Below, in pieces: positions 15,640 through 49,782 of a stretch of 64,000 bases of DNA. Made by a program: the position numbers and the translations under genes. This stretch comes from Rhizobium sp. 2MFCol3.1 (GTDB lineage Bacteria; Pseudomonadota; Alphaproteobacteria; Rhizobiales; Rhizobiaceae). Under the pieces are notes generated by a model that worked only from the letters and a program-made list of their open reading frames with translations, searched no databases and had not been told where the DNA came from. The first letter of the stretch is position 1; each line of letters begins with the position of its first letter. The stretch spans positions 248,001-312,000 of the forward strand of contig NZ_KB898355.1 in assembly GCF_000377565.1 (NCBI RefSeq), given 5' to 3'.

Positions 15640-16832
15640 CAGCGGACCACGGCTCCGTTCTCTGCAACCAATCGGCCTTCCTTGAAGACACGCCGGGGCT
15701 TCGGAATGGCGACGACGGCTTCCGGGATATGCTCGGCCGCAAGCGTCACGAAATCGGCCTTGGCGCCGATGGCGATGCCGTAGCCTTCGAGATTAAGCGC
15801 CTTGGCGCCGCCTGTAGTCACCACGTCAAAGGCGGCCGCGAGTTCCGTATCCGTGTAGAAGCCGGAGCGGTAGGCGATGATCTCAGCGCGGCGCAGCATG
15901 TCGCCATCGCCGAAGGGCCACCAGGAATCCCGGATATTGTCGTTGCCGGAGAAGACCGTGACGCCTGCCGCGCGCAGCAGCGCCACCGGCGGGAAGTTGT
16001 GGTTGCCCGGTGCGTTGGTCATGATCGCGACACCACTCTTGGCAATGAGAGCAGCGATCTTCTTGATGGCATCCGGTCCGAGATCGCCGAGGCCATAGGC
16101 GTGGCTGACGGCGACATGGCCCTGCATGCCGAGTGCGACCGTTCGGGCGCAGATTTCCTCGATGGTCATCGCGCCCATCGTGCCGGCGTCGTGGAGATGG
16201 ATATCGACATCGACGCCGCGCTTTTCGGCAATGCCGAAGACCACGTCGAGATGCCCTTTGATGTCACGGTCGAAGGAGAGCGGATCAAGCCCGCCGACAA
16301 GATCGGCGCCCATGCCGATCGCCTCGTCCATCAGCTCTGGCGTGCCGGGGCTTTTCAGAATGCCGCTCTGCGGAAACGCAACGAGCTGGATGTCGATGAT
16401 GTCCTTGTAGGCCTCGCGAACGGCAAGGATCGTCTCCAGCGATTTCAGCCCGACCGAGCCGTCGACCATCACATGGCTGCGCATCTGCAGCGCACCGTTT
16501 GCGATACAGAGATCGAGCTGCTTGCGGGCGCGCTCGTCCATCGGCGCGGCACTTGCCATGTTCTCGGCCTGGAAGGCCACGCGCTCATGCACGTCGAAGC
16601 CGTTCGTGCAGGCTTTGTGCGGGATCCACTTGTCGCCATAGAAGCTGGTGTCGAGATGGATGTGCCCCTCGACGAAACTCGGGACCAGAAGCGCGCCGGC
16701 AATGTCGACGGTCGTGGTGGCGGCCGTGCGCGTGCCAGCCTTGTTGATTGCCGCGATGCGGCCGTCCGAAACGAGGATGTCGTTGAGCGTGCCATCGGCC
16801 AGCTTGGCGTTTGTGAACAGTGTTTCGGTCAC
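15639..16832 (-). CDS. Cytosine-deaminase-like metal-dependent amidohydrolase
   Basis: A 397-residue amidohydrolase. The GTG at 16832 is chosen as start because AGGGAGA precedes it at good spacing; an in-frame ATG 54 bases upstream would add a meaningless leader. The metal motif is FVEGHIHLDTSF, a later His lies in VAVSHAYGLGDLG, and the catalytic Asp is present in SGNDNIRDSWWPFGDGD, the segment that aligns with CodA GHDDVFDPW. It is about 30% shorter in its tail than urease-type amidohydrolases and fits cytosine/isoguanine-type deaminases. It lies between the binding-protein gene (with a hairpin in the spacer) and ggt. It may deaminate or hydrolyse the base-like compound taken up by the transporter. 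Confidence 0.88.
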   Translation of the reverse strand: MTETLFTNAKLADGTLNDILVSDGRIAAINKAGTRTAATTTVDIAGALLVPSFVEGHIHLDTSFYGDKWIPHKACTNGFDVHERVAFQAENMASAAPMDERARKQLDLCIANGALQMRSHVMVDGSVGLKSLETILAVREAYKDIIDIQLVAFPQSGILKSPGTPELMDEAIGMGADLVGGLDPLSFDRDIKGHLDVVFGIAEKRGVDVDIHLHDAGTMGAMTIEEICARTVALGMQGHVAVSHAYGLGDLGPDAIKKIAALIAKSGVAIMTNAPGNHNFPPVALLRAAGVTVFSGNDNIRDSWWPFGDGDMLRRAEIIAYRSGFYTDTELAAAFDVVTTGGAKALNLEGYGIAIGAKADFVTLAAEHIPEAVVAIPKPRRVFKEGRLVAENGAVVR

Positions 16833-16874
16833 CGGGGTCTCCCTTGATGTCTTTGTTCTATCGTCATTTGCGAT

Positions 16875-16899
16875 GCTCCTCCCCAACCAGGGGAGGAGC
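16875..16899. terminator. Intercistronic hairpin after the BMP binding-protein gene
   Basis: Perfect ten-base arms GCTCCTCCCC (16875-16884) and GGGGAGGAGC (16890-16899) with a five-base loop. It lies between the binding-protein stop and the start of the amidohydrolase gene on the same strand. There is no uridine run, so it probably protects the upstream message or attenuates read-through. Confidence 0.65.
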
Positions 16900-16926
16900 G
16901 ATGTCGTGCAATCGGCGCGGCGCCGA

Positions 16927-18027
16927 TCAGTTCTGCGGCAAGGTGCCCTGCACGCCTTCGATCAGCCAGGTCATGCCCTTGATGTCGGCATCTGCGAGTT
17001 CCTGGCCCTTGGCGACCTTCACGTCACCCTTCTGATCCTTGATCTCGCCGGCAAAGGGCTTCAGCTTGCCGCTGATGATCGCGGCCTCGGCAGCCTTCAT
17101 TTCGGCGGCGACCGATTCCGGCAGTTCCGGACTGCTCGTCGTCATCTTGACGTAACCGCCCGGCCCGAGGCCCAGCCAGCGGCTTTCCGGCTTCCAGTCG
17201 CCTGCCATGACGGCCTTGGCGGCGTTGATATGGGCGGCACTCCAGTCCAACTCGAAGGATACGAGCTGCTTCTTCTTTACATAGGCGGAGAAATCGCCGG
17301 TCGAGCCGATCGACCAGACGCCCTTCTCTTCGGCGGCCAATCCCTGCACCGGCGTGTTGGGGCTGCCGGAGATGACGTCGGCGCCCTGTGCGATCAGTGC
17401 CGCGACGGCATCCTTTTCCTTGCCGGGATCAACCCAGGCGTTGGCCCAGACAACCTTCAGCGTCACATCTGGGTTGACCGAGCGGGCGCCGAGCAGGAAG
17501 GCGTTCAGGCTATAGATGACCTGCGGCACCGGGAAGGCGCCGACCCAGCCGAGAACGTTGGTCTTGGTCGTACGGCCGGCGGCGATGCCGGTGAGGTAGG
17601 TGCCCTCGTAGTGGCGGGCCTCGAAGACGCCGAGATTGTTGCCTGCCTCGATGCCGGCGCAGCATTCGAAATGCGACTTGGGCAGCATCGGCGCCAGCTT
17701 CTTCAGCGAGGCGTATTGTGAGAAGGTGGTGCCGAAGATCAGCTTGTTGCCCTGTGCAGAAAGCTGGCGGAACAGGCGCTCGCAATCCTGCACTTGGGCG
17801 ATGTTTTCGAGCACCGTTACCTTCACCTTATCGCCGAATTCCTTTTCGAGCGATTTCCAGGCGTTGGCCTGGAAATATTCCCAGCCGGTATCGGAGATGG
17901 CGCCCATATGGATGACGCCGACCTTGAGGGGCTCTTCGGCGGCGAAAAGAGGTCTTGCGCCCGCGCCGATCGCAAGCGCGCCGGCGGCGCTGGTTCTCAG
18001 GAAGTCGCGTCTGGAAAATGTGGTCAT
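16927..18027 (-). CDS. BMP family ABC transporter substrate-binding protein, Tat-exported
   Basis: A 366-residue periplasmic binding protein of the PnrA/BMP family, whose members bind nucleosides, purines or related compounds. The N-terminus has a twin-arginine signal (SRRDFLRTSAAGALAIG, residues 5-21) with cleavage probably after LFA. The family segment KVGVIHMGAISDTGWEYF follows at about 34-51, and GTTFSQYASLKKLAP and VQGLAAEEKGVWSIGSTGDF are typical of the fold. It is the fourth gene of the importer operon, after ATPase and two permeases. The link with amidohydrolases suggests a heterocyclic or modified-base ligand; the ligand is not shown by the sequence. Confidence 0.92.
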   Translation of the reverse strand: MTTFSRRDFLRTSAAGALAIGAGARPLFAAEEPLKVGVIHMGAISDTGWEYFQANAWKSLEKEFGDKVKVTVLENIAQVQDCERLFRQLSAQGNKLIFGTTFSQYASLKKLAPMLPKSHFECCAGIEAGNNLGVFEARHYEGTYLTGIAAGRTTKTNVLGWVGAFPVPQVIYSLNAFLLGARSVNPDVTLKVVWANAWVDPGKEKDAVAALIAQGADVISGSPNTPVQGLAAEEKGVWSIGSTGDFSAYVKKKQLVSFELDWSAAHINAAKAVMAGDWKPESRWLGLGPGGYVKMTTSSPELPESVAAEMKAAEAAIISGKLKPFAGEIKDQKGDVKVAKGQELADADIKGMTWLIEGVQGTLPQN

Positions 18028-18073
18028 TTCGGTTCCCTCTGTTGATGTTTGATCTGGTTGATGGACGGCTGTT

Positions 18074-18994
18074 TCAGCCCTCGGCGGCGAATGGCTTGCC
18101 GAGGGAAGCGGGGACGTTGAGGCGCATCAGTGCGGCGTTGCGCGAGATCAGCACCAGCACGACGATGGTGACGAGATAGGGAAGGGCGGACATGAGCTCG
18201 GACGGCAGGCCTATGCCGGCGCTCTGGGCAAAAAGCTGCGCGATTGTCGCACCGCCGAACAAATAGGCGCCGAGGAAGCAGCGTCCCGCTCGCCAAGTGG
18301 AAAAAACCACCAGTGCCACGGCGATCCAGCCGCGCCCGGCGATCAGTCCCTCGGTCCACAGCGAGGTGTAAACGATCGAGACATAGGCGCCCGCGATGCC
18401 GGCGCTGGCGCCGCCGAACAGCGTGGCGAGATAGCGGATGAAGTTGACCGGATAGCCGAGCGCATGCGCGGATGTGGGAGATTCACCGACGGCGCGCAGG
18501 ATAAGCCCGCTGCGGCTGCGGTTCAGGAAATACCAGACGCCGGCGAAGAAGACCCAGGACAGCCACGTCAGTGGATGAAGCTGGCCGAGAACCATGCCCA
18601 GCAACGGGATTTTCGCGGCAAGCCTTGATGCCGCCGAAGGCTCGATCACGATCGCCATACCGATATAGGGTTTGCCGATGAACGAGGCGAGGCTGGTGCC
18701 GAAGATCGTCAATGCCAGCCCGACCGCGATCTGGTTGGCGCGGAAGCCGACGGCTAGCACCGCGAACATCAGGGCGAGCAGCATGGCGGCCAGCATGGCC
18801 GCGAAGACGGCAAGCCACAGGCTGCCCGTCGCCATCATCACGATGAAGGCGATCACCGCGCCGATCACCATCATGCCCTCGACGCCCATGTTCAGCACGC
18901 CTGAGCGTTCGGCAACGAGTTCGCCGAGTGCTGCGTAGATCAGGGGCGTGCCGGCAACGAGCGTGGCCACGAGTATGGGAAGGATCTGGTCCAT
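18074..18994 (-). CDS. ABC transporter permease (nucleoside/base type, BPD_transp_2)
   Basis: A 306-residue inner-membrane permease of the type that pairs with BMP binding proteins (YufQ/NupQ-like). It begins MDQILPILVATLVAGTPLIYAALGELVAERSGVLNMGVEGMM; the ERSGVLNMGVEGMM segment (about 29-42) is the family hallmark. About eight to ten membrane helices can be seen. Its ATG touches the stop of the preceding permease gene (one-base overlap at 18994), showing coupling. Confidence 0.92.
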   Translation of the reverse strand: MDQILPILVATLVAGTPLIYAALGELVAERSGVLNMGVEGMMVIGAVIAFIVMMATGSLWLAVFAAMLAAMLLALMFAVLAVGFRANQIAVGLALTIFGTSLASFIGKPYIGMAIVIEPSAASRLAAKIPLLGMVLGQLHPLTWLSWVFFAGVWYFLNRSRSGLILRAVGESPTSAHALGYPVNFIRYLATLFGGASAGIAGAYVSIVYTSLWTEGLIAGRGWIAVALVVFSTWRAGRCFLGAYLFGGATIAQLFAQSAGIGLPSELMSALPYLVTIVVLVLISRNAALMRLNVPASLGKPFAAEG

Positions 18995-20070
18995 CAGGCG
19001 GCGGCTCCCTGCCGGTTGGAGGACTGGAAGCGGATGCGGTATTGAATGAAGACATCCGTCGTCAGCAGGAAGAAGAGGAGTGTGCTCTGCAGAAGGCCGG
19101 TGATCGAGGACGGCATGCCAAGCGACATCTGCGCGACATCGCCCGAGAGGTAGAGCAGCGCCATCAGGAGGCCGGAGAGCAGGATGCCGACGGGGTGCAG
19201 ACGCCCGAGAAAGGCGACGATGATCGCCGCGTAGCCATAGCCGGGCGATGCGGTGGGGAAAATCTGTGCAAGCGGTCCGGCGATCTCGCCGACGCCGGCG
19301 ATGCCGGCCGCCGCACCGCTTGCCAGTATGCCGATCCAGACCGCGCGGCTGACGCCGAAGCCGGCATAGCGCGCGGCACCTTCGGAGAGGCCAGTGACCT
19401 TTAGCTGGAAGCCGGCGAAGCTGCGGTTCATGAACAGCCAGCCCGCGACAACCGCGCCCAGCGCGAAGAGCACGCTGACATTGGCGCGGGTATCCTCGAT
19501 CAGGATCGGGAATAGGGCATCCGGCGCCAGCGGCTCCGACTGCGGGAAATTGAACCCGGCCGGGTCACGCCAGAGGCCGAAGATCAGCCAGGACAGCCAG
19601 AGTGCCGCGACGTAATTGAGCATCAGGCTCACCAGGATTTCGCTGGCATTGAACTTGATGCGCAACAGCGCCGGGATGGCTGCCCAGAAGACGCCGCCAG
19701 CGGCGCCGGCGATCACCATCAAGGGCAGAACCCACCAGCCACCAGTCGGCCCAAACTTCAGCGCGACATAACCGGCGAAGATGACGCCCACGGTCAGCTG
19801 TCCTTCCGCGCCGACGTTCCAGATGCCGGCGCGAAAGCCGATCGCGAGCCCGACGCCGATCAGCACCAGGGGCGCGGCCTTGATCAGGAGTTCGCCGAGA
19901 CCGTAGAGATCGGCAAGTGGCGCGGTCAGGAAGGTGATCAGCGCCTCCAGCGGGTTCTGGCCTGCGAGCGCGAAGAGCACCATGGCAACGATCGACGTCA
20001 GCGCGATCGCGATGACCGGCGACATCAGGATCATGATGCGCGAGGGATTGGGGCGCGGTTCAAAGCGCAT
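18994..20070 (-). CDS. ABC transporter permease (nucleoside/base type, BPD_transp_2)
   Basis: A 358-residue permease, partner of the shorter one downstream. The start MRFEPRPNPSRIM at 20070 is preferred to the in-frame ATG at 20163, because the extra 31 residues lie inside the upstream ATPase gene and lack membrane character. The family hallmark is the FRAGIWNVGAEGQLTVG segment, followed by many hydrophobic helices and YGYAAIIVAFLGRLHPVG near the end. The gene begins 11 bases inside the ATPase gene, so translation is coupled. Confidence 0.91.
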   Translation of the reverse strand: MRFEPRPNPSRIMILMSPVIAIALTSIVAMVLFALAGQNPLEALITFLTAPLADLYGLGELLIKAAPLVLIGVGLAIGFRAGIWNVGAEGQLTVGVIFAGYVALKFGPTGGWWVLPLMVIAGAAGGVFWAAIPALLRIKFNASEILVSLMLNYVAALWLSWLIFGLWRDPAGFNFPQSEPLAPDALFPILIEDTRANVSVLFALGAVVAGWLFMNRSFAGFQLKVTGLSEGAARYAGFGVSRAVWIGILASGAAAGIAGVGEIAGPLAQIFPTASPGYGYAAIIVAFLGRLHPVGILLSGLLMALLYLSGDVAQMSLGMPSSITGLLQSTLLFFLLTTDVFIQYRIRFQSSNRQGAAA

Positions 20071-21631
20071 GGGCAAGCTCCTTGCTGGCGCGTTCATCTG
20101 GCTCGTCAGCGGTACTTTGGCCGGACATGGCAATGCCGATCGCATCTCGGTTCGCCTCGGCAATCGGTATGGCCGCCGTCAGCCGGCCGCCGGCGATGAC
20201 GGCGATCCGGTCGGAGATTTCGAAGAGCTCGTCGAGTTCTTCGGAGATAACTACGATCGCCGCACCCCGATCGCGCAGGTCGAGCAGCGCCTGGCGGATG
20301 ACCAGTGCCGCGCCGACGTCCACGCCCCAGGTCGGTTGCGAGACGATCAGTACGCCCGGCTCCTGCAGGATCTCGCGGCCGATGATGAACTTCTGAAGGT
20401 TGCCGCCCGACAGGCTGCCGGCCCGCGCCTGTGCGCCGGGTGTCCTGACGTCGAAGGCCTGGATGCAGCGCTCGGCATAGGCCTTGACGCGATCGAAGCG
20501 GATGAGGCCGGCGCGAACGGCGCCGTTGCGATTGGCGGTGAGCAGGACATTCTCCAGGAGCGGCAGCGAAGGAACCGAGCCCTGCTTCAGCCGATCCTCG
20601 GGCACGGAGCAGAGGCCAAGCCGCCGCCGGCCGGCAGGATCGCGATGGCCCGCCGGCTTGCCGTCGATGGTGATCGTATCGGCGTTCGAGAGCGGCGTTT
20701 CGCCCGAGAGTGCTGCCAGTAACTCCTGCTGGCCGTTGCCCGAGACGCCGGCGATGCCGAGGATTTCGCCGCCGCGCACCGCAAAGCTGATGTCGCCAAG
20801 CGCCGTTCCGAACGGGTCCTGGGTGGGGAGCGTCAGACCGGAAACGCTGAGGCGTGTCTTGCCGGCCGACGTGTCGCTGCGATGGCGAAAGCTCGGGAGA
20901 TCGGCGCCGATCATCATGCGGGCCATCGAGGCCGGGCTTTCCTGCCTCGGATCGCACATGCCGGTCACCCGGCCGCCGCGCAGGATCGTCGCGGTGTGGC
21001 AGAGATCCCGGATCTCGTTCAGCTTGTGGCTGATATAGAGAATGCTGCATCCCTCGGCCGCGATCTGCCGCAGCGTTACGAAGAGCGTTTCGACCGCCTG
21101 CGGCGTCAGCACCGAGGTTGGCTCGTCGAGAATGAGCAGGCGCGGATTTTGCAAAAGCGCGCGGATGATCTCGACCCGCTGCCGTTCGCCGACCGACATC
21201 GTATAGATGTGCCGCTCCGGCTCGACCGGCAGGCCATAACGCGCGGCGACTTCGGCGATCCTTTTCGACAGCGGTTCGATCGGCGGCCGGCCGGGCAGCG
21301 CCAGCGCGATGTTCTCCGCCACCGACAGCGTGTCGAACAGCGCGAAATGCTGGAACACCATGCCGATGCCGAGCTTCTGCGCATCGGCGGGCGAGGCGAT
21401 CGACACCTCGCGTCCATCCCACAGGAGTTCGCCGGAATCCGGGCGCACCATGCCGTGGATGATCTTCATCAGCGTCGACTTGCCAGCGCCGTTCTCGCCG
21501 ACGACGGCGTGGATCTCGCCCGGACGGACGCAAAGGTCTATCCCGTCATTGGCGACCACGGCCGGATAGGCCTTGCGGATGCCTCGCAACTCAAGGCGGT
21601 GTTCGGTATGTGGCGATATCGTATGTGGCAT
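20060..21631 (-). CDS. ABC transporter ATP-binding protein with two ATPase domains (nucleoside/sugar type)
   Basis: A 523-residue fused double ATPase like RbsA/NupO. The first domain has Walker A GENGAGKST (about 45-53), Q-loop VFQHFALFDTLSVAENI, signature TMSVGERQRVEI and Walker B LLILDEPTSVLTP. The second has a degenerate Walker A region (GVSGNGQQELL) and signature SLSGGNLQKFIIGRE, which is normal for this class, where the second site is less active. It is the first gene of the importer operon; its promoter region holds two GntR-like operator sequences. Confidence 0.94.
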   Translation of the reverse strand: MPHTISPHTEHRLELRGIRKAYPAVVANDGIDLCVRPGEIHAVVGENGAGKSTLMKIIHGMVRPDSGELLWDGREVSIASPADAQKLGIGMVFQHFALFDTLSVAENIALALPGRPPIEPLSKRIAEVAARYGLPVEPERHIYTMSVGERQRVEIIRALLQNPRLLILDEPTSVLTPQAVETLFVTLRQIAAEGCSILYISHKLNEIRDLCHTATILRGGRVTGMCDPRQESPASMARMMIGADLPSFRHRSDTSAGKTRLSVSGLTLPTQDPFGTALGDISFAVRGGEILGIAGVSGNGQQELLAALSGETPLSNADTITIDGKPAGHRDPAGRRRLGLCSVPEDRLKQGSVPSLPLLENVLLTANRNGAVRAGLIRFDRVKAYAERCIQAFDVRTPGAQARAGSLSGGNLQKFIIGREILQEPGVLIVSQPTWGVDVGAALVIRQALLDLRDRGAAIVVISEELDELFEISDRIAVIAGGRLTAAIPIAEANRDAIGIAMSGQSTADEPDERASKELAHAL

Positions 21632-21660
21632 GATGACAATCTTGGCTACATGATCTCTGT

Positions 21661-21678
21661 AATCACGTATGCAAAATT
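21661..21678. promoter_or_regulatory. Partial GntR-type operator close to the importer start
   Basis: AATCACGTATGCAAAATT matches one half of the better palindrome at 21824-21841 (read on the other strand AATCACGTATACATGATT) and lies 30 bases upstream of the ATPase gene. Two copies before the same gene suggest control by the neighbouring GntR regulator. Confidence 0.45.
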
Positions 21679-21823
21679 GATGCCATTCCGTATCGATCGC
21701 CGCGTCAAACGCTGCGAAAAAGCCCTATAGGTATGGATTCATTGAGATAAAACACGCGCGGTGCCGGATGTTACGCAAAAGCGAGCAAAATCGTGAGCGG
21801 TTTTCCGTCTACATAAAATGCAA

Positions 21824-41457: not shown

Positions 41458-41556
41458 GACGCGACACGACGGCAAGGCTCTCAACAGCCTGAAATTCTTC
41501 TGTTTCCATCGCTGGCGTTCGCTAGGATGGGTGGGGAACACAGAGAGAGTGAGAAG

Positions 41557-42588
41557 ATGCGCACCACAAAGATCGTTCATGTTGTCAGTTGTCATGCCGA
41601 GGGCGAGGTCGGCGACGTGATCGTCGGCGGCGTCGCGCCACCGCCCGGTGAAACCGTGTGGGAACAATCCAGATGGATTGCCAAGGACCAGACGCTTCGC
41701 AACTTCGTTCTCAACGAGCCGCGCGGCGGTGTCTTCCGCCACGTCAACCTGTTGGTGCCGCCGAAGAACCCGAAGGCGCAGATGGGCTGGATCATCATGG
41801 AACCGGAGGACACGCCTCCGATGTCGGGATCGAACTCGATCTGCGTTTCCACCGTCCTCTTGGACAGCGGTATCATCCCGATGACCGAACCGGTGACCAG
41901 GATGGTGCTCGAAGCGCCCGCCGGCCTCGTCGAGGTCGAGGCTGAATGCCGGAACGGCAAGGCAGAGCGCATTACCGTGACCAACGTCAAGAGCTTCGCC
42001 CAGAAGCTGGGTGCCAAGCTTGATGTGCCTGGAATTGGTGCGCTCACCGTCGACACGGCCTATGGCGGCGACAGTTTCGTAGTCGTCGATCCCGAAGAGA
42101 TCGGCCTCGAGCTGATCCCGGAGAACGCCCGCCTGATCGCCGAGACGGGCATCAGGATCACCAATGCCGCAAATCAGCAGCTGGGCTTCTCGCACCCCGA
42201 AGATACGGGTTGGAACCACATCTCCTTCTGCCTCTTTGCCGGCAAGCCCTATCGCGAGGATGGCGATCTTCTGGTCAAATCGGTCGTCGCCATCCAGCCT
42301 GGCAAGATCGACCGCTCGCCCACCGGCACGGCGGTCTCGGCGCGCATGGCGCTTCTCAACGCGCGCGGCGAGCTGCACGAAGGCGAGAGCCTGACCGGCG
42401 TCTCGATCATCGGCACGAGGTTCGTTGGCAAGATCGTCAAGGAGACGACGATCGCCGACCAAAAGGCGATCGTTCCCTCAATCACCGGCAGCGCCTGGAT
42501 CAGCGGCACCGCCCAATTGATGCTCGACCCAACCGATCCATTCCCCGGCGGCTACAAGCTTTCGGATACTTGGCCGATGCTGAAGTGA
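41557..42588 (+). CDS. Proline racemase/hydroxyproline epimerase family protein with Ser/Thr catalytic pair
   Basis: A 343-residue protein of the proline racemase superfamily. The first catalytic position is Ser90 ([10 protein letters not shown]) and the second is Thr256 ([10 protein letters not shown]). Characterised members have Cys/Cys or Ser/Cys pairs (racemases and epimerases) or Cys/Thr (trans-3-hydroxy-L-proline dehydratase); Thr at the second site favours a dehydratase-type reaction, while Ser at the first site is unusual with it. The ATG at 41557 with GAGTGAGAAG before it is preferred to an ATG 30 bases upstream. It lies 100 bases after the isomerase gene and may be separately expressed. 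No proline-catabolic neighbour is visible. Confidence 0.85.
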
Positions 42589-42594
42589 GCGCGT

Positions 42595-42626
42595 GGTTCC
42601 GGGTTGCGACGCAACAACCTGGGACC
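42595..42626. terminator. Hairpin between convergent genes, probable bidirectional terminator
   Basis: A stem with GTTGC (42603-42607) pairing GCAAC (42611-42615), extended outward with a few mismatches by GGTTCC and GGGACC. It sits six bases after the racemase-family stop and ten bases before the stop of the convergent ParB-like gene, and marks the left edge of the recombinase island. There is no clear T run. Confidence 0.5.
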
Positions 42627-42635
42627 AACAATAGA

Positions 42636-43562
42636 TCATCCGCTTTCGGGAGGCATCGTTGATGTGATTTCGACGATGCTTTGAAACTCGGGTAAATATT
42701 CGGGTCGATTGACGACGAGATAACTCACCACCCGAGAATTTCCGAGAAGGCGCTTTAGATAGCCTTTGACCACCGTAAGCTCCAAGTGGTCCTTCCCATA
42801 GCTGTCCTGGATCGAACTCATGGCCTCCTGGAGCCGAGCCAGCTCTTTCTCCATGCGGGCAATGGCGTCGGCTGTCATGCCTTTGATCGTTTTGGGCTTG
42901 TCCGGCTCGGCCAGTTGATTGCGTGGCGTTCCAGCCAAGATCGCCGATGCATAGGCGACGGAGTAATTATTGGCGTTGATCATCAGGTCGGCTGTTTCTA
43001 TCTGCCTGAGAGGTTGCATCTTCTTCAGGATCTCGAAGATCGCCATTGGGCAGTTCTTGTCTTTCAAGAGTTCCGTTGCCTCGGCACAGACACCGTTCAG
43101 CATCCGTGAACGCCGACGGATCGTTGCCACATTGACCGAAAGAACTCTCGCGATCCTGTCTTCAGGCACTCCCTGGTTCATGGCGTTGACGATCATCGCG
43201 TATTCCTGCACGGCGGCGAGGCGATTGATCTGCTTGTTGTACGTGAACGCTTCGTCGTCCGTTGAAACCAGGCACTCCACTTCCGTTCGCCCAAGATCTT
43301 TCAGCACCTCAATTCGCAGATGGCCGTCAAGGACGAAAAATGTTCCCACGTTGTCCGGATTGCGGGCAACGACCGGCGGTTCGACCAGGCCGACTTCCGT
43401 TACGGATGTTGCGATCTGCTTGTATTTTCGGCTCGACTTGACGGCCTTGCGCATCACCCTGCCGGGCAACAACTGATCCAGCCTGACAAGGATGCAGTGG
43501 TTTTCGAAGCCCTGGCGTACTGGCTTGTCTTGCGGGGGATTGTCGGTGTCGTCGTTGTTCAT
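42636..43562 (-). CDS. ParB/RepB-like protein B of the recombinase operon
   Basis: A 308-residue protein with ParB-like organisation: an N-terminal ParB domain (VRLDQLLPGRVMRKAVKSS near 26-45 and FVLDGHLRIEVLKDLG near 90-105, the equivalent of the ParB GxRR box), a helix-turn-helix around residues 145-170 (PEDRIARVLSVNVATIRRRS) and a C-terminal RepB-type region with a coiled-coil-like helix (MEKELARLQEAMSSIQ). It starts three bases after the stop of the other ParB-like gene. It has no RepA or ParA partner here, so plasmid partition is unlikely; its actual role is unknown. Confidence 0.82.
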   Translation of the reverse strand: MNNDDTDNPPQDKPVRQGFENHCILVRLDQLLPGRVMRKAVKSSRKYKQIATSVTEVGLVEPPVVARNPDNVGTFFVLDGHLRIEVLKDLGRTEVECLVSTDDEAFTYNKQINRLAAVQEYAMIVNAMNQGVPEDRIARVLSVNVATIRRRSRMLNGVCAEATELLKDKNCPMAIFEILKKMQPLRQIETADLMINANNYSVAYASAILAGTPRNQLAEPDKPKTIKGMTADAIARMEKELARLQEAMSSIQDSYGKDHLELTVVKGYLKRLLGNSRVVSYLVVNRPEYLPEFQSIVEITSTMPPESG

Positions 43563-43565
43563 GGC

Positions 43566-44471
43566 TCAACCTCTTACAAGCCGATGCCTTAGAGGGGCGG
43601 GAACAGCATCCAGCCCTTCTGTTTGCAACAAACTCATGAAGCCGTCCTCCGCCATGAGCGAGCGGATGGCTTCAACGACGAACAGCAGCTTGCCTTGCGT
43701 GACTTCGGCCTTCTTGATCAAGACCTTCTGTCGATCAGCCTCCAGCTGGTAAGCCCTGACCATCGCTTCGCTTGTCAGAGTGCGCCTCGGCGCATTGTAT
43801 CTCCCGAAATTCTGATCAAGTAGTCGGCCACCTTTCAGGCTGCGTTGTTGCAACAACCTTCGTACTGTGACGAGCTTTTTGCCCCGGAGTTTCTTTTGCG
43901 TGTAAGCTTCCACGAGAGCGGCTTGGGCGCCTTCTTCATCTGCCTTGGCAATATCGACAGCGAGGCTCAACGGCAGAACGCCAGCTTCGACGGCGGAAAG
44001 AAGTCGCTCCTCGCCCTTTTCGAGCAGGCCGCCGATCATGTTCACATACTCGGATGTAAAGCCGATCTTTCTGCCGATCTCCTTGTCGCTGTAGCCACGT
44101 TGACGGAGGTTCGCTATTTCCTGAAGCAGATCGATCGCGCGATGCTGCCGTCGCGCACAATTCTCGACAAGGCTCATGACGAGGCACTCATTTTTGCTCG
44201 CCTCGATGACCATTGCCGGAATATGCGTTTGTCCCAACGCTTGATAGGCTTCGATACGTCCCTGTCCGCACACGAGGTCGTAGCTTGCGTCGGGTCCATC
44301 GACATGTCTCTTGCTGACCGTGATCGGCCGTTTCAGTCCCACCTTTGATATATTGTCGACGAGAAGCTTAAATTTGCGCTTGTCGCGCTCCCTCGGGTTT
44401 AAGACACGGATTCGATTGATTGGAATGATGTCGATGTATTTCCAAGCGTCGTCGGTTGTTTCGTTTGTCAT
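43566..44471 (-). CDS. ParB/RepB-like protein A of the recombinase operon
   Basis: A 301-residue ParB-family protein. The N-terminal domain includes INRIRVLNPRERDKRKF, ISKVGLKRPITVSKR (about 40-55) and LVCGQGRIEAYQALGQTHIPA (about 66-86, ParB box), followed by ENCARRQHRA and a helix-turn-helix at about 122-145 (YSDKEIGRKIGFTSEYVNMI). Its ATG overlaps the recombinase stop in an ATGA arrangement, so it is made together with the recombinase. It differs clearly from protein B, so the two may form a heteromeric DNA-binding complex. Confidence 0.85.
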   Translation of the reverse strand: MTNETTDDAWKYIDIIPINRIRVLNPRERDKRKFKLLVDNISKVGLKRPITVSKRHVDGPDASYDLVCGQGRIEAYQALGQTHIPAMVIEASKNECLVMSLVENCARRQHRAIDLLQEIANLRQRGYSDKEIGRKIGFTSEYVNMIGGLLEKGEERLLSAVEAGVLPLSLAVDIAKADEEGAQAALVEAYTQKKLRGKKLVTVRRLLQQRSLKGGRLLDQNFGRYNAPRRTLTSEAMVRAYQLEADRQKVLIKKAEVTQGKLLFVVEAIRSLMAEDGFMSLLQTEGLDAVPAPLRHRLVRG

Positions 44472-46042
44472 GCTGCATCCTCCAAAATTGCTCTTCGGCT
44501 GAGATCAAAGAAGAAGTCCAGTGAATGAAAACGGTAGGCGTCCAAGGAGAAGGCGTTTTGTTCCATGAGGCTGAGTTTTGGTGGCGTCATGTCGATGGAT
44601 GGGAGCAGGTAGTAGTCCAGTGTGCCCTCATTGGTTTCATCCATGCGGACCACGATTGTGATGTCGGGAACAAGTCCCGTATCAAGCCGTATTTTCCATC
44701 GCAGCGCGCCGGCTTTCGTGCATGCCGAGCGTGCCAGGATGACGGAGATGGAGAATTCCTCGTTGACGTGAAGTAGGTCTGTGAAGGGGTCCTGAACAAC
44801 AGATGCGCCCACGGAGACAAGCTTTTCGATGAGAGAGGTGACTGTGTGTGGGTGCCGCCGCCGCAGGTCGCGGTTGATCTCGATGTAACGATAGTCTCGG
44901 CCCGGATCGTAACCGATCATGCTGTATGCGCGAAGAAGGCTGCCGAAACGCCTACGATAGGTATTCGTGGATGGCATCGAATCCATTTCATCGATGATGA
45001 ATCCCGAGAGGCTTCCTTGCGTTTCGAGGACGTTTCGTAAAAGTCCGAGCAGCTCTCCGTCGCTGAGATGTTGGCTTCGCGCATCGATTATGGCGCGTGC
45101 CCGGTCGAACAGGGCTTTCTCGACAACCGGAGTGAACACGCCTTCGGCTCGAATCCACATATCCGGCTTGTTGCGAACACGCTGTTGTTTCAGCTTGAAA
45201 GAGACACGGTTGTAGACGTTGTTTCCGATGTACTTTTCGTTCACCAGGATCTGATGGATCGTACCGCGGCTCCAAGGCCTGCCAAGATCGGATGTTAAGC
45301 CCACCATGTTCAGCAGGTCGGCGATTTCCGCTTCCGGTTTTCTTTCCTCGACAAACATTTGATAGATACGTCGGACAGTATCTGTCTCAAGCTTGGGGCC
45401 GGGGATGAGAATCACCCGGTCGGTTTGAAGGCTTTTGCGTTGGCCAGGTAGCAGTTCCCCTTTGGAGTTGCCGTGCTCGTCGATGAGCAAGCGCCTTAAG
45501 CCGAAACCGGGAGCGCCACCTTGGCGATATCCCAACTCGGTCAAGCGACATTGTCCGGCAAACACTTTCACGGAAAGATCCCGGCTGTAATCTCCCGCCA
45601 TAATTCGACCGACTGATTTCAGGATATGCGCTTTGGTGCTTCCGTCATTCTCGAACTGCTCTGCGCAGTAGTGCACGCGTATTCCCGTTCGCGAGCACAT
45701 GTATTCGTAGTGCGCACTCTCGTCTGAATTTTGAAAGCGCCCCCATCGGCTGATGTCGTAGACAAGGATGGCCGCAAATGGTGCCTCACCGGAATCGACG
45801 TCGTCCATTAGTTGTTTCAGCGCGTCGCGGCCATCGAGCCGTAAGCCGCTGCGACCAGCGTCTTCGTAGATGCGAACAATTTCAAAGCCTCTGGCATCGG
45901 CATAGCGGCGGATGGCCGTGAGCTGATTTTCCATCGAATATTTTTGGAGATCGGTTGACGTGCGAATGTATGCAGCGGCCGGTGTCGTCACGCCGTCGCT
46001 CGCCGTGCTTGGCGAAATGGTCTTGGTTGAGGACTTCACCAA
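44468..46042 (-). CDS. Large serine recombinase
   Basis: A 524-residue site-specific recombinase. The catalytic resolvase domain occupies about 22-160, with nucleophile Ser29 in AYIRTSTD, the arginine-bearing YEDAGRSGLRLDGRDAL and VYDISRWGRFQ. The Recombinase domain (about 175-310) has GYRQGGAPGFGLRRLLID and NEKYIGNNVYNR. The last 200 residues lack an evident cysteine-rich zinc ribbon and may be a special domain of recombinases that travel with ParB-like genes. Codon use and base composition are more A+T-rich than in flanking operons. It is the first gene of a three-gene coupled operon. Confidence 0.9.
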   Translation of the reverse strand: MVKSSTKTISPSTASDGVTTPAAAYIRTSTDLQKYSMENQLTAIRRYADARGFEIVRIYEDAGRSGLRLDGRDALKQLMDDVDSGEAPFAAILVYDISRWGRFQNSDESAHYEYMCSRTGIRVHYCAEQFENDGSTKAHILKSVGRIMAGDYSRDLSVKVFAGQCRLTELGYRQGGAPGFGLRRLLIDEHGNSKGELLPGQRKSLQTDRVILIPGPKLETDTVRRIYQMFVEERKPEAEIADLLNMVGLTSDLGRPWSRGTIHQILVNEKYIGNNVYNRVSFKLKQQRVRNKPDMWIRAEGVFTPVVEKALFDRARAIIDARSQHLSDGELLGLLRNVLETQGSLSGFIIDEMDSMPSTNTYRRRFGSLLRAYSMIGYDPGRDYRYIEINRDLRRRHPHTVTSLIEKLVSVGASVVQDPFTDLLHVNEEFSISVILARSACTKAGALRWKIRLDTGLVPDITIVVRMDETNEGTLDYYLLPSIDMTPPKLSLMEQNAFSLDAYRFHSLDFFFDLSRRAILEDAA

Positions 46043-46127
46043 TAGAAAACCTCTTCAAAAACGCTTGCAGTGAAATTGTCCGGCTCATGAGAGCAGGCAT
46101 CCCAAACGTACTTGAGAGGAGGCTAGA

Positions 46128-46523
46128 ATGTCGTTTACCAAGAAGGGTAAGTCCTTTCCCTATGCTGCACGCGGAAAGAGGGGTCTTATAGATGAGCTGA
46201 AGTTCGCGACGGTCATTTCATTGGCGCTAGAGCGGGCCGTTGAAGATACACAATTGAACGTCAAGACGGTGGTCGGGTGGACTGGTGCCAATGACCGGAC
46301 CGTCAAAAACTGGTTTAGCGGCCGATACGCGCCCCTTGGCCATCATCTGATGCTACTTGCTACTCACTGCGATGACGTGATGGAGGCAATCATCATGATG
46401 GCCGGACGAGATAGCTTGTTGGTCGCTGTGAGCCTTGACGACGTTGAGCGACGTCTGACGGCGGCTTTAGCGCTAGTCCGTAGCGTTCAAGCAACTGGTT
46501 TGGGGGCAGATACCGTGCCCTAA
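46128..46523 (+). CDS. Small helix-turn-helix-like protein divergent from the recombinase operon
   Basis: A 131-residue basic protein of unrecognised family. The middle part KTVVGWTGANDRTVKNWFSG (about 46-65) looks like a short helix-turn-helix, with VKNWFSG as recognition helix, and the C-terminal half is helical. GAGAGGAGGC precedes the ATG. Only 85 bases separate it from the recombinase start, so it could regulate the operon or act as a directionality factor. Base composition is as in the island. Its function is not known to me. Confidence 0.65.
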   Translation: MSFTKKGKSFPYAARGKRGLIDELKFATVISLALERAVEDTQLNVKTVVGWTGANDRTVKNWFSGRYAPLGHHLMLLATHCDDVMEAIIMMAGRDSLLVAVSLDDVERRLTAALALVRSVQATGLGADTVP

Positions 46524-46715
46524 GGTAGCAGGCGCTGACGATCTGAATCTTGTTGATTTCGAGTATAATTTCGTCGGCCAAAGCTCGCGGCTCGATCACT
46601 GATCGGGCCAGGTGCTTGCCGCCGGGTCCATGCCCTGCGTTCTCAGCTAGGCGTGGATCCGGTGGGGGTAGTCGTCGGTGCGACCTGGGTTTGGGCCACG
46701 TCGGCCGCGCGGCGC

Positions 46716-47717
46716 TTAGCGCGACGCGATCAGAACCGTGCCGGATTTGCCGGGCTTTTCGACAAGTGCGGCAGCCTTGCCGACATCCGCGAGATCGAAC
46801 GTCTGCTCAACCTGAAAGAGCTCCGGCTTGCTGGCTGCGAGCTCAAGCGCCAGCTTGAGGTCGGCCTTGCGGACGTCTACAGGCAAGCCAGCCCACCGCC
46901 CGACCGTCACGCCCGACAGCCGGATGTCGCGTGTCGAAAAGTAAAGCGCGGGGACCGAGATCGGCTGTCCGGAAAGGTCGCCGTAGGACACCAGGCTACC
47001 GCCTTGGGCGAGCAGGCCGACCGCCGCACTGGCCGTCTCGCCGCCAACCGGGTCGAGCACGACGCCGATGGGATGGTCGTCGGCGGCCGCAACGACCTTG
47101 TCCTGCCAGCCGGGCTTGTCAGTTGAAACCACCGGCAGATCAGGAAACACGACATTGAGCTCGTTCACGCCGGCTTCCCGTCGGACGACACCGACGACAT
47201 CGAAGCCGCGATCGAGAAGCAGTCCGATCACCAGTCTGGCGACCGCGGATCCTGCGGCGCTGAGGACGACGACGTCGCGGCCCGGCTTCGCGCCGGATGT
47301 CTCTACGGCCCGCAAGAGAAGCGCCGTTGTCAGCGGATTGACGTGCAGCTGTGCTGCGGCTTCGTCCGATACGTTATCGGGGATTTTGGTGACGTATTCG
47401 GCCGAAACGATTGCCTTCTCGCTCCACGCACCCCTGCCGGGGAAGAAGGCAACGCGTGTGCCGGGTTTCAGATCGACGCCACTACCGGCTTCCTCGACGA
47501 TGCCGTAGCCTTCGAAGCCGACGCGCACGCCCTCCTTTGGAAGCGGTGCTCCCGGCTGGTAGCGTCCTGCTATGCCGAGAAGGTCGCCGTGATGGACCGG
47601 CCGGAGAAGTACCCGGATCAGCACTTCGTTGTGGTCTGGATGCTTGGGATCTTCGACGTCGACTGCCTGAAGAACGTCCTCAGGCTTGCCATGCTTGAAA
47701 TAGACTGCGGCACGCAT
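46716..47717 (-). CDS. MDR family NAD(P)H-dependent oxidoreductase (quinone/enoyl reductase-like)
   Basis: A 333-residue medium-chain reductase without zinc ligands. The catalytic domain begins MRAAVYFKHGKPEDVLQAV with VRVGFEGYGIVEEAGSG at about 60-76; the nucleotide domain has VVLSAAGSAVARLVIGLLLDRGFDVVGVVRR condensed near 150-180 (AAGSAVARLVIG as dinucleotide loop), and the tail reads VGKAAALVEKPGKSGTVLI. The ATG at 47717 is chosen; AAGGAGAGC precedes it. It follows the SDR gene by 58 bases and the two are probably co-expressed in the reduction or detoxification of a carbonyl compound. Confidence 0.88.
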   Translation of the reverse strand: MRAAVYFKHGKPEDVLQAVDVEDPKHPDHNEVLIRVLLRPVHHGDLLGIAGRYQPGAPLPKEGVRVGFEGYGIVEEAGSGVDLKPGTRVAFFPGRGAWSEKAIVSAEYVTKIPDNVSDEAAAQLHVNPLTTALLLRAVETSGAKPGRDVVVLSAAGSAVARLVIGLLLDRGFDVVGVVRREAGVNELNVVFPDLPVVSTDKPGWQDKVVAAADDHPIGVVLDPVGGETASAAVGLLAQGGSLVSYGDLSGQPISVPALYFSTRDIRLSGVTVGRWAGLPVDVRKADLKLALELAASKPELFQVEQTFDLADVGKAAALVEKPGKSGTVLIASR

Positions 47718-47775
47718 CGCGGGCTCTCCTTGAGAATGAGAAGTGGAGCGGCTGTTCGCCGCTCCTGCTGTGGGG

Positions 47776-48531
47776 TTAGACCTGAGCCTGGCCGCCATCG
47801 GCGAAGAGTTCGGCGCCGTTGACGAAGCTTGCATCGTCGGAGGCGAGGAACAGGGTTGCCTTGGCGATCTCCTCGGATTCACCGACGCGGCCGAGCGGGA
47901 TGCGCGAGGCGAGATAGTCGAGCAGGCCCTGCTGCTGTTCCTTGTCGTCACCGGCAAGCTCGACTAGGCCGGGCGTGCGTGTGGCGCCGGGCGAGACCAC
48001 GTTGACGCGGATGCCGGTGCCCTTGAGATCAAGCGCCCAGGAGCGGGCGAGGTTGCGGACAGCGGCCTTGGAGGCGGAGTAGACGGAGAAGGCAGCCGTG
48101 CCTTCGGTGCCTGCGGTCGAGCCGGTCAGTACGACCGACGAGCCCTTGCCCATAAGCGGAAGCGCTTTCTGCACCGTGAAGATCACGGCCTTCACGTTGC
48201 GGCCGAAGGTGTCGTCGACCTGCTCTTCGGTGATCTGGCCAAGCGGAAGCATGCTACCGCCACCGGCGTTGACGACGAGAGCGTCAAGGCGACCCTGTTC
48301 CGCCTTAACCTGGGCGAAAAGCTTGTCGAGATCAGCATTGCTCGAGGAGTCGGCCTGTACGCCGACAGCGCCATGACCGATCTCGGCCACTGCCTTGTCC
48401 AGCGCATCCTTGCGGCGGCCGGTGATGTAGACGCGAGCGCCTTCGGCGGCGAAGAGCTTGGCGGTCGAGAGGCCGATGCCGCTGGTTGCTCCGGTGACGA
48501 CAGCGATCTTGTTTTCAAGTCTTTTGGTCAT
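47776..48531 (-). CDS. Short-chain dehydrogenase/reductase
   Basis: A 251-residue SDR of the classical type. Cofactor motif TGATSGIG (about 14-21), [10 protein letters not shown] (arginines at 37-38 suggest NADPH), NAGGGSMLP near 88, catalytic [12 protein letters not shown] and [10 protein letters not shown] (Tyr-x-x-x-Lys near 152-156), and C-terminal [27 protein letters not shown] precedes the ATG. The LysR gene lies upstream on the same strand and may regulate it together with the downstream MDR gene. The substrate is unknown. Confidence 0.92.
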
Positions 48532-48698
48532 TTTACTCTCCTGATGCTGGGCGCGCGAAAGGGTTCAGCCCGAATGCGCGGCCTGTTGAAGTTCTGAAAC
48601 TGTTCGGGAGGTGGCGTTGGCCGTTGGCCTCGTCGCCGTCCGATGAGGAGAAGTTAGTTCGTCAGCTTGGCGGCGAGAAGCCGCTCAGGGTGGAGACA

Positions 48699-49640
48699 TT
48701 ATCCATGGGGATGGATGGTCTCCGTCGTCACATTGCGTCTGGCATCGACGGCTTCGAATATTTTCGCCGCCCACTCCGTGAAGGCGCGCAGCCGCGGGTT
48801 TGGAAATCGATCGGCCGGGTAGACGAGGTGCAGCGGATGATTGTCCGGCTTCCACTCAGGCAGCAGTTCGATCAGCGCCCCGGTCTCGAAGTGCGGTCTT
48901 GCGAGGAAGCCGAAGCTCTGGCCGATCCCCAGTCCCGACAGCAGCGCGTTCAGGTGTGCGGTGCTCTCGTTCACCGAAATGCCGCTGGAGGTCGGGAGAT
49001 ACTCGCCTCGCTCGTCTCCGCGCTGGAACCGCAGCGGAAACCTCTTGCCAGATGATGCAGAGAAGTAGCTGACGATCCGATGCTGCTCGATATCCTCCGG
49101 CCGCTCCGGCAACTGCAGGCCATCCAGATAGCTGGGCGACGCGCAAATGACGTAGTCCAACTCGCACAGTTTTCGCGCCTTCATCGATGAGTCACTCAGC
49201 GCCCCGCCGCGAATGACGCAATCGATCCCCTCACCGACGAGGTCGGCGGGCCGATCGCTGACCCCAAGCATGAGATCGATATCAGGATACTGGTGCTGAA
49301 AATCTGAGAGTGCGGGGATGAGGATCTGATTTGCCAGCACGGACCCGATATCGACGCGCAGCTTTCCCTTTGGCGCGCTGCGGGAACCGGCGACCGTGCC
49401 GTCCATGTCATCAAGATCGGCGAGGAGCTTCAGCGCGCGCTCGTGATAGGCGACACCCTCGGTGGTCATCGTGACCGACCGCGTGGTGCGCTCGACCAGC
49501 TTGGTCCCGAGATGCGCCTCAAGATCCTGCACCAGTTTGCTGACGGAGGAGCGGGGCAGGTTCAGCGTATCCGCCGCCTTGGCAAACGAGCCGGCCTCGG
49601 CGACGCGGACAAAGGTTCGAATGGCGAGTATCTGATCCAC
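48699..49640 (-). CDS. LysR family transcriptional regulator
   Basis: A 313-residue regulator. The helix-turn-helix is FVRVAEAGSFAKAADTLNLPRSSVSKLVQDLEAHLG in outline (about 10-45; key words AGSFAKAADTLNLPRSSV), with LVERTTRSVTMTTEGVAYHERAL following, as in the AaeR/DmlR branch of LysR proteins. The effector domain occupies about 90-300. It lies 167 bases upstream of the SDR gene on the same strand; its own promoter faces open sequence to the right. Confidence 0.93.
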   Translation of the reverse strand: MDQILAIRTFVRVAEAGSFAKAADTLNLPRSSVSKLVQDLEAHLGTKLVERTTRSVTMTTEGVAYHERALKLLADLDDMDGTVAGSRSAPKGKLRVDIGSVLANQILIPALSDFQHQYPDIDLMLGVSDRPADLVGEGIDCVIRGGALSDSSMKARKLCELDYVICASPSYLDGLQLPERPEDIEQHRIVSYFSASSGKRFPLRFQRGDERGEYLPTSSGISVNESTAHLNALLSGLGIGQSFGFLARPHFETGALIELLPEWKPDNHPLHLVYPADRFPNPRLRAFTEWAAKIFEAVDARRNVTTETIHPHG

Positions 49641-49782
49641 GGGAGGTCCGGCTGCTGTTGGTTAGACGATGACCATCTATACCGGATCGCTTAGCCCCGT
49701 CATGCAAGTTATTGCTTGATTTGGATAATCCTGCGCCATTGACGCGTCCATCGCGGTTCGGGCACGACGGACGCGATCTGGT

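What the first reader, a model, noticed from the sequence alone, without database searches (positions are those of the whole stretch)
42636..46523. Translationally coupled operon of a serine recombinase and two different ParB/RepB-like proteins, no ParA partner
The three minus-strand genes overlap or nearly overlap (ATGA at 44468-44471, three-base gap at 43563-43565), so recombinase and both ParB-like proteins are made together. There is no ParA/RepA, no replication gene and no transposon ends that I can see, so plasmid partition is not a satisfactory explanation. The two ParB-like proteins differ from each other, both have an N-terminal ParB domain and helix-turn-helix, and the recombinase lacks an evident zinc ribbon in its last 200 residues. 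One reading is that the ParB-like pair replaces the recombinase's own DNA-targeting domain or assembles a nucleoprotein complex at the site. Alternatives are a domesticated integrative element or a defence-type module. The region is more A+T-rich than its neighbours, which suggests transfer.
Basis: partly seen in the sequence, partly recalled or inferred. Interest (0 to 1): 0.78.

Follow-up and report, generated by a model that had tools for sequence, protein, structure and literature searches.

The report
Four-gene recombinase–ParB mobile element
Genes for a serine recombinase, two ParB-like proteins and a small likely regulator recur together as one compact unit at unrelated places in many bacteria; the unit likely moves by site-specific recombination, with the ParB-like pair predicted to help the recombinase rather than to segregate a plasmid.

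Summary
In detail: serine recombinase (44468-46042), ParB1 (43566-44471) and ParB2 (42636-43562) form a tight minus-strand operon, and a divergent small gene (46128-46523) belongs to it. The unit recurs in the same order: 71 of 73 genome loci with room carry recombinase-ParB1-ParB2, 57 of 76 the divergent gene. Its surroundings mostly do not recur: 240 of 251 locus pairs align only inside the unit. Two Agrobacterium plasmids share 3,904 bp of it (96.9%) in unrelated flanks, and a third shows the probable unoccupied site, by its left flank. It is best read as a stand-alone integrative element of about 4 kb, not a partition module: the genome's other two RepB proteins lie beside ParA matches, these two do not. 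Proposed mechanism: the recombinase integrates and excises; the ParB-family pair, possible CTP clamps, assembles the synaptic complex or sets direction. Mobility is inferred from comparison; the ParB role is untested. The unit also lies near the end of many predicted proviruses, but 13 of 43 carry two or more large serine recombinases, so it need not be the phage's integrase. Ten literature searches showed no description.

The parts
44468..46042 (-). Serine recombinase, 524 aa, TTG start; Resolvase + Recombinase domains, no zinc ribbon, conserved C-terminal region
43566..44471 (-). ParB1, 301 aa: ParB_N + RepB domain; GxGRxEA and EN..RR residues invariant in 37 sequences
42636..43562 (-). ParB2, 308 aa: diverged ParB N-domain, HTH-like helices, long C-terminal helix, RepB domain
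46128..46523 (+). Divergent 131-aa small protein, probable helix-turn-helix regulator (assigned by eye; no Pfam family over cut-off); conserved upstream of the recombinase
46043..46127 (.). 85-bp intergenic region between the divergent genes; promoter/operator region by position only
42589..42635 (.). Left edge of the unit (ParB2 side); the best congener matches to the neighbouring host gene stop at or before 42586
46524..46623 (.). Right edge of the unit (small-gene side); congener similarity starts abruptly at 46624 in 4 of 4 congeners aligned
46624..46704 (.). Host DNA: piece of a gene that is intact in congener G015 (L168); in four congeners about 2.7 to 6.9 kb separate it from the next conserved block (46707 onward)
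42599..42604 (.). CCGGGT, tentative left crossover core; the only 6-mer shared directly by the two edges
   Evidence: may be chance
46622..46627 (.). CCGGGT, tentative right crossover core
   Evidence: may be chance

Best explanation
The four genes at 42636-46523 recur together, in the same order, at unrelated places in other bacteria, and are likely a compact integrative element that the recombinase would move by site-specific recombination, with the two ParB-family proteins likely acting as its DNA-bridging or direction-setting partners. Shown by comparison: the conserved unit, the mostly unrelated flanks, and occupied and unoccupied sites in relatives. Inferred: that the recombinase cuts at the unit's ends, using a short core and neither long terminal repeats nor target duplication. 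Predicted: the small divergent protein represses the operon. Also predicted: ParB1 (which keeps CTP-clamp-like motifs) and ParB2 (where they are degenerate) load at or beside the attachment sites and control synapsis or the choice between integration and excision.
For: Gene order: of 80 genome loci, 71 of 73 with room have near-full-length ParB1 and ParB2 directly after the recombinase (exceptions L080, L130); 57 of 76 with room have the divergent gene. Of 80 viral-contig loci found with ParB2, 51 of 51 with at least 3 kb in front have ParB1 and the recombinase. Stand-alone: 240 of 251 pairs, 54 loci, judged on the longest alignment, are confined to the unit within 320 bp. Same element, different place: pAtC58 and pAt1D1460 share 3,904 bp at 96.9%; L219 and L220 share 4,196 columns at 92.7%. 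Empty sites: pAtCFBP5877a matches the C58 left flank up to the element edge; 16 listed plasmid records match both flanks of the Sphingobium pSF1 insert without its 5.6 kb, two of them checked by alignment. Both C58 junctions, one 1D1460 junction and the empty site carry CCTTGA (the other 1D1460 junction CCTGGA) followed by a tRNA T-arm-like stretch. Recombinase: active-site-type residues (assigned from knowledge) Y25, R27, S29, Q40, D96, R99, R102 invariant in 38 sequences; best fold matches are serine integrases incl. Bxb1 and phiC31, E 2.5e-10 and above, but TM at most 0.24. Co-inheritance: distance correlations 0.91, 0.79, 0.77, 36 loci, 0 of 2,000 permutations as high. ParB homology.
Against: No excision, circle or movement was observed. 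For the window's own copy neither an empty site nor a proven core was found: the two flanks are not adjacent in the congeners examined, CCGGGT may be chance, and the window takes part in only one confined pair (with L051). In the C58 case only the left flank of the empty plasmid matches. In Sphingobium the insert is flanked by an imperfect 76-bp repeat, unusual for a serine recombinase. Eleven of 251 pairs share more than the unit; in a re-run at a laxer threshold 243 of 254 were confined, and 3 of these have a further collinear flank match of 300 bp or more. Confinement between distant pairs can partly reflect divergence of flanks. Nothing here tests what the ParB proteins do. ParB2 has no glutamate aligned to that of ENxxR. 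Models are moderate: pLDDT 73.3 and 78.0, pTM 0.51 and 0.46.
Confidence: 0.6

Rival explanations
1. The unit is an integrative element, but the ParB-like proteins are only transcriptional autoregulators (as KorB is on RK2, recalled) and take no part in recombination.
For: The ParB1 profile matches KorB and Noc chains; overlapping genes with the recombinase.
Against: Two different ParB-family genes plus a separate small likely regulator would be much regulation for one operon; both are kept in 71 of 73 loci.
Confidence: 0.22
2. The trio is the integration module of temperate phages, and stand-alone copies are its remnants.
For: 41 of 59 virus records of at least 20 kb have ParB2 within 8 kb of one end with the recombinase side outward, 5 the other way, 13 neither; about 12.6 expected on either side by uniform placing. 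L288 lies in a provirus with terminase, portal, tape measure and tail proteins.
Against: PF05065 capsid in 5 of 43 and PF04860 portal in 6 of 43 records only. 13 of 43 hold two or more PF07508 recombinases, about nine of them with one towards the opposite end, and in G418 and G431 the only one lies far from the trio genes; 8 of 43 hold a tyrosine integrase. Provirus boundaries may be trimmed at integrases. Near-identical stand-alone units occur in different places without phage genes next to them.
Confidence: 0.15
3. The ParB pair is a plasmid or element partition module beside a resolvase.
For: PF07506 is named for RepB partition proteins.
Against: No PF13614 match on contig C3; the genome's two other PF07506 proteins lie about 0.8 kb from such matches on C1 and C7. 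Relatives occur on plasmids and on other contigs alike.
Confidence: 0.05
4. The trio is an anti-phage or anti-plasmid defence module.
For: Neighbours in some plasmids include Fic, AbiEii, restriction and Abi genes.
Against: PADLOC: only a weak methyltransferase match to ParB2, E 4.6e-6; neighbours differ between loci and are mostly outside the shared unit.
Confidence: 0.03

Closest known systems
Large serine integrases (e.g. Bxb1, phiC31)
   Same: Resolvase catalytic domain plus Recombinase domain; best fold matches, at low TM; short shared core at junctions of the C58-type copies.
   Different: No zinc-ribbon domain; a conserved C-terminal region instead; encoded with two ParB-family partners in 71 of 73 loci. 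Known directionality factors are not ParB proteins (recalled).
RepB/ParB proteins of RepABC and ParABS, Noc, KorB
   Same: ParB N-domain, HTH and, in ParB1, the GxxR and EN..R motifs.
   Different: No ParA-type gene (PF13614) on the contig; encoded with a recombinase; two dissimilar copies; ParB2 motifs degenerate.
RIT elements and GInts
   Same: Compact set of recombination genes found at many sites (GInt: title, start of abstract in the listing, one passage; RIT recalled).
   Different: Those use tyrosine recombinases, three in RIT (recalled); here one serine recombinase and two ParB-like proteins. The GInt main text has no occurrence of 'ParB'.
Ccr recombinases of SCC and IS607-type transposases
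   Same: Serine recombinases; best NCBIfam matches.
   Different: Far under the cut-offs: CcrB 75.1 of 900 bits, IS607 29.4 of 110 bits.

Membership tests
Large serine integrase | Resolvase domain with catalytic Ser/Arg residues | tested here: met
   (residue roles recalled)
Large serine integrase | Recombinase domain (PF07508) | tested here: met
   E 3.1e-19
Large serine integrase | C-terminal zinc ribbon | tested here: not met
   no such Pfam hit in the C-terminal part; no invariant or nearly invariant cysteine after residue 126
Large serine integrase | attP x attB recombination in vitro or in vivo | not testable with these tools
   needs experiment
ParABS/RepABC partition | ParA/RepA partner nearby | tested here: not met
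   PF13614 only
ParABS/RepABC partition | ParB N-domain and HTH | tested here: met
CTP-switch ParB clamp | CTP-binding motifs | tested here: inconclusive
   ParB1 keeps GxGRxEA and EN..RR; ParB2 only partly; no binding assay
DDE-type or Tn3-type transposon | Terminal inverted repeats / target duplication | tested here: not met
   Direct repeats: no long ones at most unit ends (up to 21 bp at L053). Inverted repeats tested only at the window edges: no shared word of 7 or more
RIT / GInt | Tyrosine recombinases in the unit | tested here: not met
Known anti-phage defence system | PADLOC model match | tested here: not met
   one weak methyltransferase match to ParB2
Prophage integration module | Sole integrase of proviruses that carry virion genes | tested here: inconclusive

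The most novel reading that the evidence does not exclude
A widespread, apparently undescribed class of integrative element in which a zinc-ribbon-less serine integrase works only with a pair of ParB-family CTP-dependent DNA clamps: one clamp with intact motifs (ParB1) and one degenerate clamp (ParB2) load at the attachment sites, bridge them and, by a CTP switch, decide between integration and excision.
Probability: 0.3. Interest if true: 0.88.

Novelty: new variant of a known kind. Interest (0 to 1): 0.64.

Why it matters
Many proteins annotated 'plasmid partitioning protein RepB C-terminal domain-containing' beside a 'recombinase family protein' may not concern plasmid partition at all. If the ParB pair is an obligate recombination partner, it would give serine integrases a nucleotide-switched accessory factor, ParB clamps a new role, and perhaps a new kind of small integration tool. 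It would also give genome annotators a signature for element ends.

Tried and rejected
Partition module: disfavoured. Defence: no support. Long direct repeats as att sites: absent at most loci. A palindrome upstream of the recombinase was dropped: by position it lies inside the small gene's coding start. tRNA targeting as a general rule: T-arm-like words are enriched near unit ends (8 in 93,755 bases, in 7 loci, against 13 in 1,150,134) but only in a minority of loci; the near length is inflated by slicing errors for L062 and L109, as is the looser and weaker scan. A clean empty site for the window's own copy: not found. Provirus-integrase reading: weakened by second recombinases. Dropped rows: L117 from alignment A2, L076 from A1 and A2; the 11 non-confined pairs are reported. 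L051 was given a later start in A3. Pair counts used 88 of 90 sequences whose unit could be bounded and, of their pairs, only those with flank on both sides.

Full report
What is there. The three minus-strand genes exist as described and overlap or nearly overlap: ATGA at 44468-44471 and three bases at 43563-43565. Pfam gives Resolvase and Recombinase domains for the 524-aa protein, ParB_N plus RepB (PF07506) for the 301-aa protein and, over cut-off, RepB alone for the 308-aa protein. A fourth ORF, 46128-46523 on the plus strand, 131 aa, starts 85 bp away and points the other way; it has no Pfam family over cut-off, and by eye looks like a Cro-type helix-turn-helix protein. The stretch 42605-46621 has GC 0.543 against 0.625 and 0.626 in the 10 kb on either side.

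It is one conserved unit. A scan of genome contigs with the recombinase confirmed 229 relatives and kept 80 loci. Of 73 with at least 2.1 kb after the recombinase, 71 have near-full-length ParB1 and ParB2 in the same order and strand; L080 (ParB1 cut short) and L130 (ParB1 in two pieces) are the exceptions. Of 76 with at least 700 bp before it, 57 have the divergent small gene. By record titles the hosts are mostly Alphaproteobacteria, with metagenome bins named Acidobacteria, Verrucomicrobia, Planctomycetota and others. The reverse search, ParB2 in 240 genomes of the class, hit 33 at E 0.001; of the 14 strong matches fetched from genomes other than the window's, 13 are nearly full-length and have ParB1 and the recombinase next door, and one (L200/L308, lacking the first 82 residues) has neither. 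Second copies in G166 and G260 were not fetched; three C-terminal fragments (L202-L204) have no partners in their short loci. Distances between loci agree among the three proteins: r = 0.91 (ParB1-ParB2), 0.79 (ParB1-recombinase), 0.77 (ParB2-recombinase), 36 loci, 0 of 2,000 permutations as high.

It mostly stands alone. Among pairs of loci with at least 3 kb of DNA alignment and at least 1.5 kb of flank on both sides, the longest alignment is confined to the unit within 320 bp in 240 of 251; the 11 others come from an Erythrobacteraceae group (6 pairs), a Sphingobium plasmid group (3), one Sphingomonas pair and two copies in one Pinisolibacter genome. At a laxer threshold 243 of 254 were confined, and 3 of these 243 have another collinear flank match. 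The clearest case: Agrobacterium fabrum pAtC58 (L132) and A. tumefaciens pAt1D1460 (L179) share 3,904 bp at 96.9%, from 39 bp beyond the small gene to 56 bp beyond ParB2, in unrelated flanks. Plasmid pAtCFBP5877a (L180) matches the C58 left flank up to that edge and has no unit there; to its right it does not match C58. Both C58 junctions, the right 1D1460 junction and the unoccupied site carry CCTTGA, the left 1D1460 junction CCTGGA, each followed by a stretch like a tRNA T-arm. A 54-nt query of this site found 143 plasmid records at E up to 1, nearly all Rhizobiaceae, many by partial matches. A second pair, L219 and L220, matches over 4,196 columns at 92.7% with no other plus-strand match. 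In Sphingobium the pSF1 copy carries an extra gene (CoiA-like in sister plasmids): 16 listed records cover both flanks but lack about 5.6 kb (pSLPG and one more were aligned), and the insert is flanked by an imperfect 76-bp repeat that pSLPG has once. In Roseomonas a 7.4-kb stretch with a restriction-enzyme gene is shared between contexts.

The window's copy. On the left, the best congener matches to the neighbouring gene stop at or before 42586. On the right, four of four congeners aligned match from 46624 onward and not before; 46624-46704 is a piece of a gene intact in G015, and in the four congeners about 2.7 to 6.9 kb separate it from the next conserved block. The unit therefore spans about 42.6-46.62 kb. 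The only 6-mer shared directly by both edges is CCGGGT (42599-42604 and 46622-46627), a tentative core that may be chance. The two flanks are not adjacent in the congeners examined, so no empty site could be shown. Of 59 congeners searched, three (G022, G031, G044) have a full-length relative at 55-59% identity, and G022's lies on another contig than its copy of the right flank.

The recombinase. Residues of the serine-recombinase active site (assigned from knowledge) are invariant in 38 sequences, as are many in the last 200 residues; no zinc ribbon was found and a sub-threshold HNH_repeat match lies at 350-377. The AlphaFold2 model (pLDDT 73.3, pTM 0.51) matches serine integrase structures best by Foldseek E-value, with TM-scores of at most 0.24 over the long chains, so it supports the family, not a detailed shape. 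The protein keeps DNA-binding-type regions of its own; the ParB pair need not replace them.

The ParB pair. ParB1 keeps GxGRxEA where aligned ParB chains have GERRYRA, and EN..RR where they have ENLQR. ParB2 aligns to Noc, but no glutamate is aligned to that of ENLQR; its model (pLDDT 78.0, pTM 0.46) has a ParB-like N-domain, helices and a long helix, with ParB, Noc and KorB as the best fold matches, TM 0.24-0.32 on the query length. One clamp with intact motifs and one degenerate partner is a reading, not a test. The genome's two other PF07506 proteins (contigs C1 and C7) lie about 0.8 kb from PF13614 matches; contig C3, which holds the window, has none.

Phages. The best PHROGs are an integrase family for the recombinase and families of unknown function for ParB1 and ParB2. 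ParB2 found 84 relatives in viral contigs, 80 kept; 51 of 51 with at least 3 kb in front have the whole trio. In records of at least 20 kb, 41 of 59 have ParB2 within 8 kb of one end with the recombinase side outward, 5 the other way, 13 neither, against about 12.6 expected for either side. One record is a siphovirus-like provirus by its genes. Against a simple integrase role: capsid PF05065 in 5 of 43 and portal PF04860 in 6 of 43 records tested, two or more large serine recombinases in 13 of 43, a tyrosine integrase in 8 of 43. The 43 were chosen by me from the 80. Some proviruses may use the trio, some may only neighbour it.

Literature. Ten full-text searches gave listings; passages only were seen in PMC6536676, PMC10853773, PMC5385486, PMC7466150 and PMC8627217. 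None of these lines or passages describes the unit. Subscription papers and preprints are not held, one search listed 20 of 1,433 and 20 of 44, so this is not proof of novelty.

Verdict. An ordinary kind of chemistry (serine integrase) in an unusual package: a compact, widespread element with an obligatory-looking ParB-family pair. That it is one mobile unit is well supported by comparison; how the pair works is a prediction that can be tested directly.

Noticed in passing
L180:7957-8868: A VapC-family toxin gene and its neighbour on pAtCFBP5877a lie between two copies (one with 3 mismatches) of the CCTTGA + T-arm-like motif that flanks the recombinase unit in C58, as if small modules are exchanged at such motifs.
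   Followed up: partly
window 12829-21681 and 46712-49730: In several congeners (G043, G015, G022, G032) these two blocks are adjacent, so the window is rearranged relative to them.
   Followed up: no
L175:9830-9990: In congener G043 the orthologue of the window's left-flank gene (41527-42588) is followed directly by a tRNA-Gly-like gene (by eye), a usual integration hotspot.
   Followed up: no
virus records G406, G407, G408, G413, G423, G424, G426, G427, G435: Predicted proviruses with the trio near one end and a second large serine recombinase towards the other.
   Followed up: partly
L134: A 13.5-kb 'Lactiplantibacillus plantarum' plasmid record with the trio has GC 0.647, far above that host (recalled), and is probably a contaminant contig.
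   Followed up: partly
L131:7483-11307: The trio sits on the 496-kb Pseudomonas aeruginosa plasmid p12939-PER between lvaB/prpR-type genes and a site-specific integrase.
   Followed up: no
L307:3509-4075: In G282 the ParB2 end of a diverged trio abuts what by eye looks like a truncated acyl-CoA synthetase gene, suggesting insertion into a gene.
   Followed up: no
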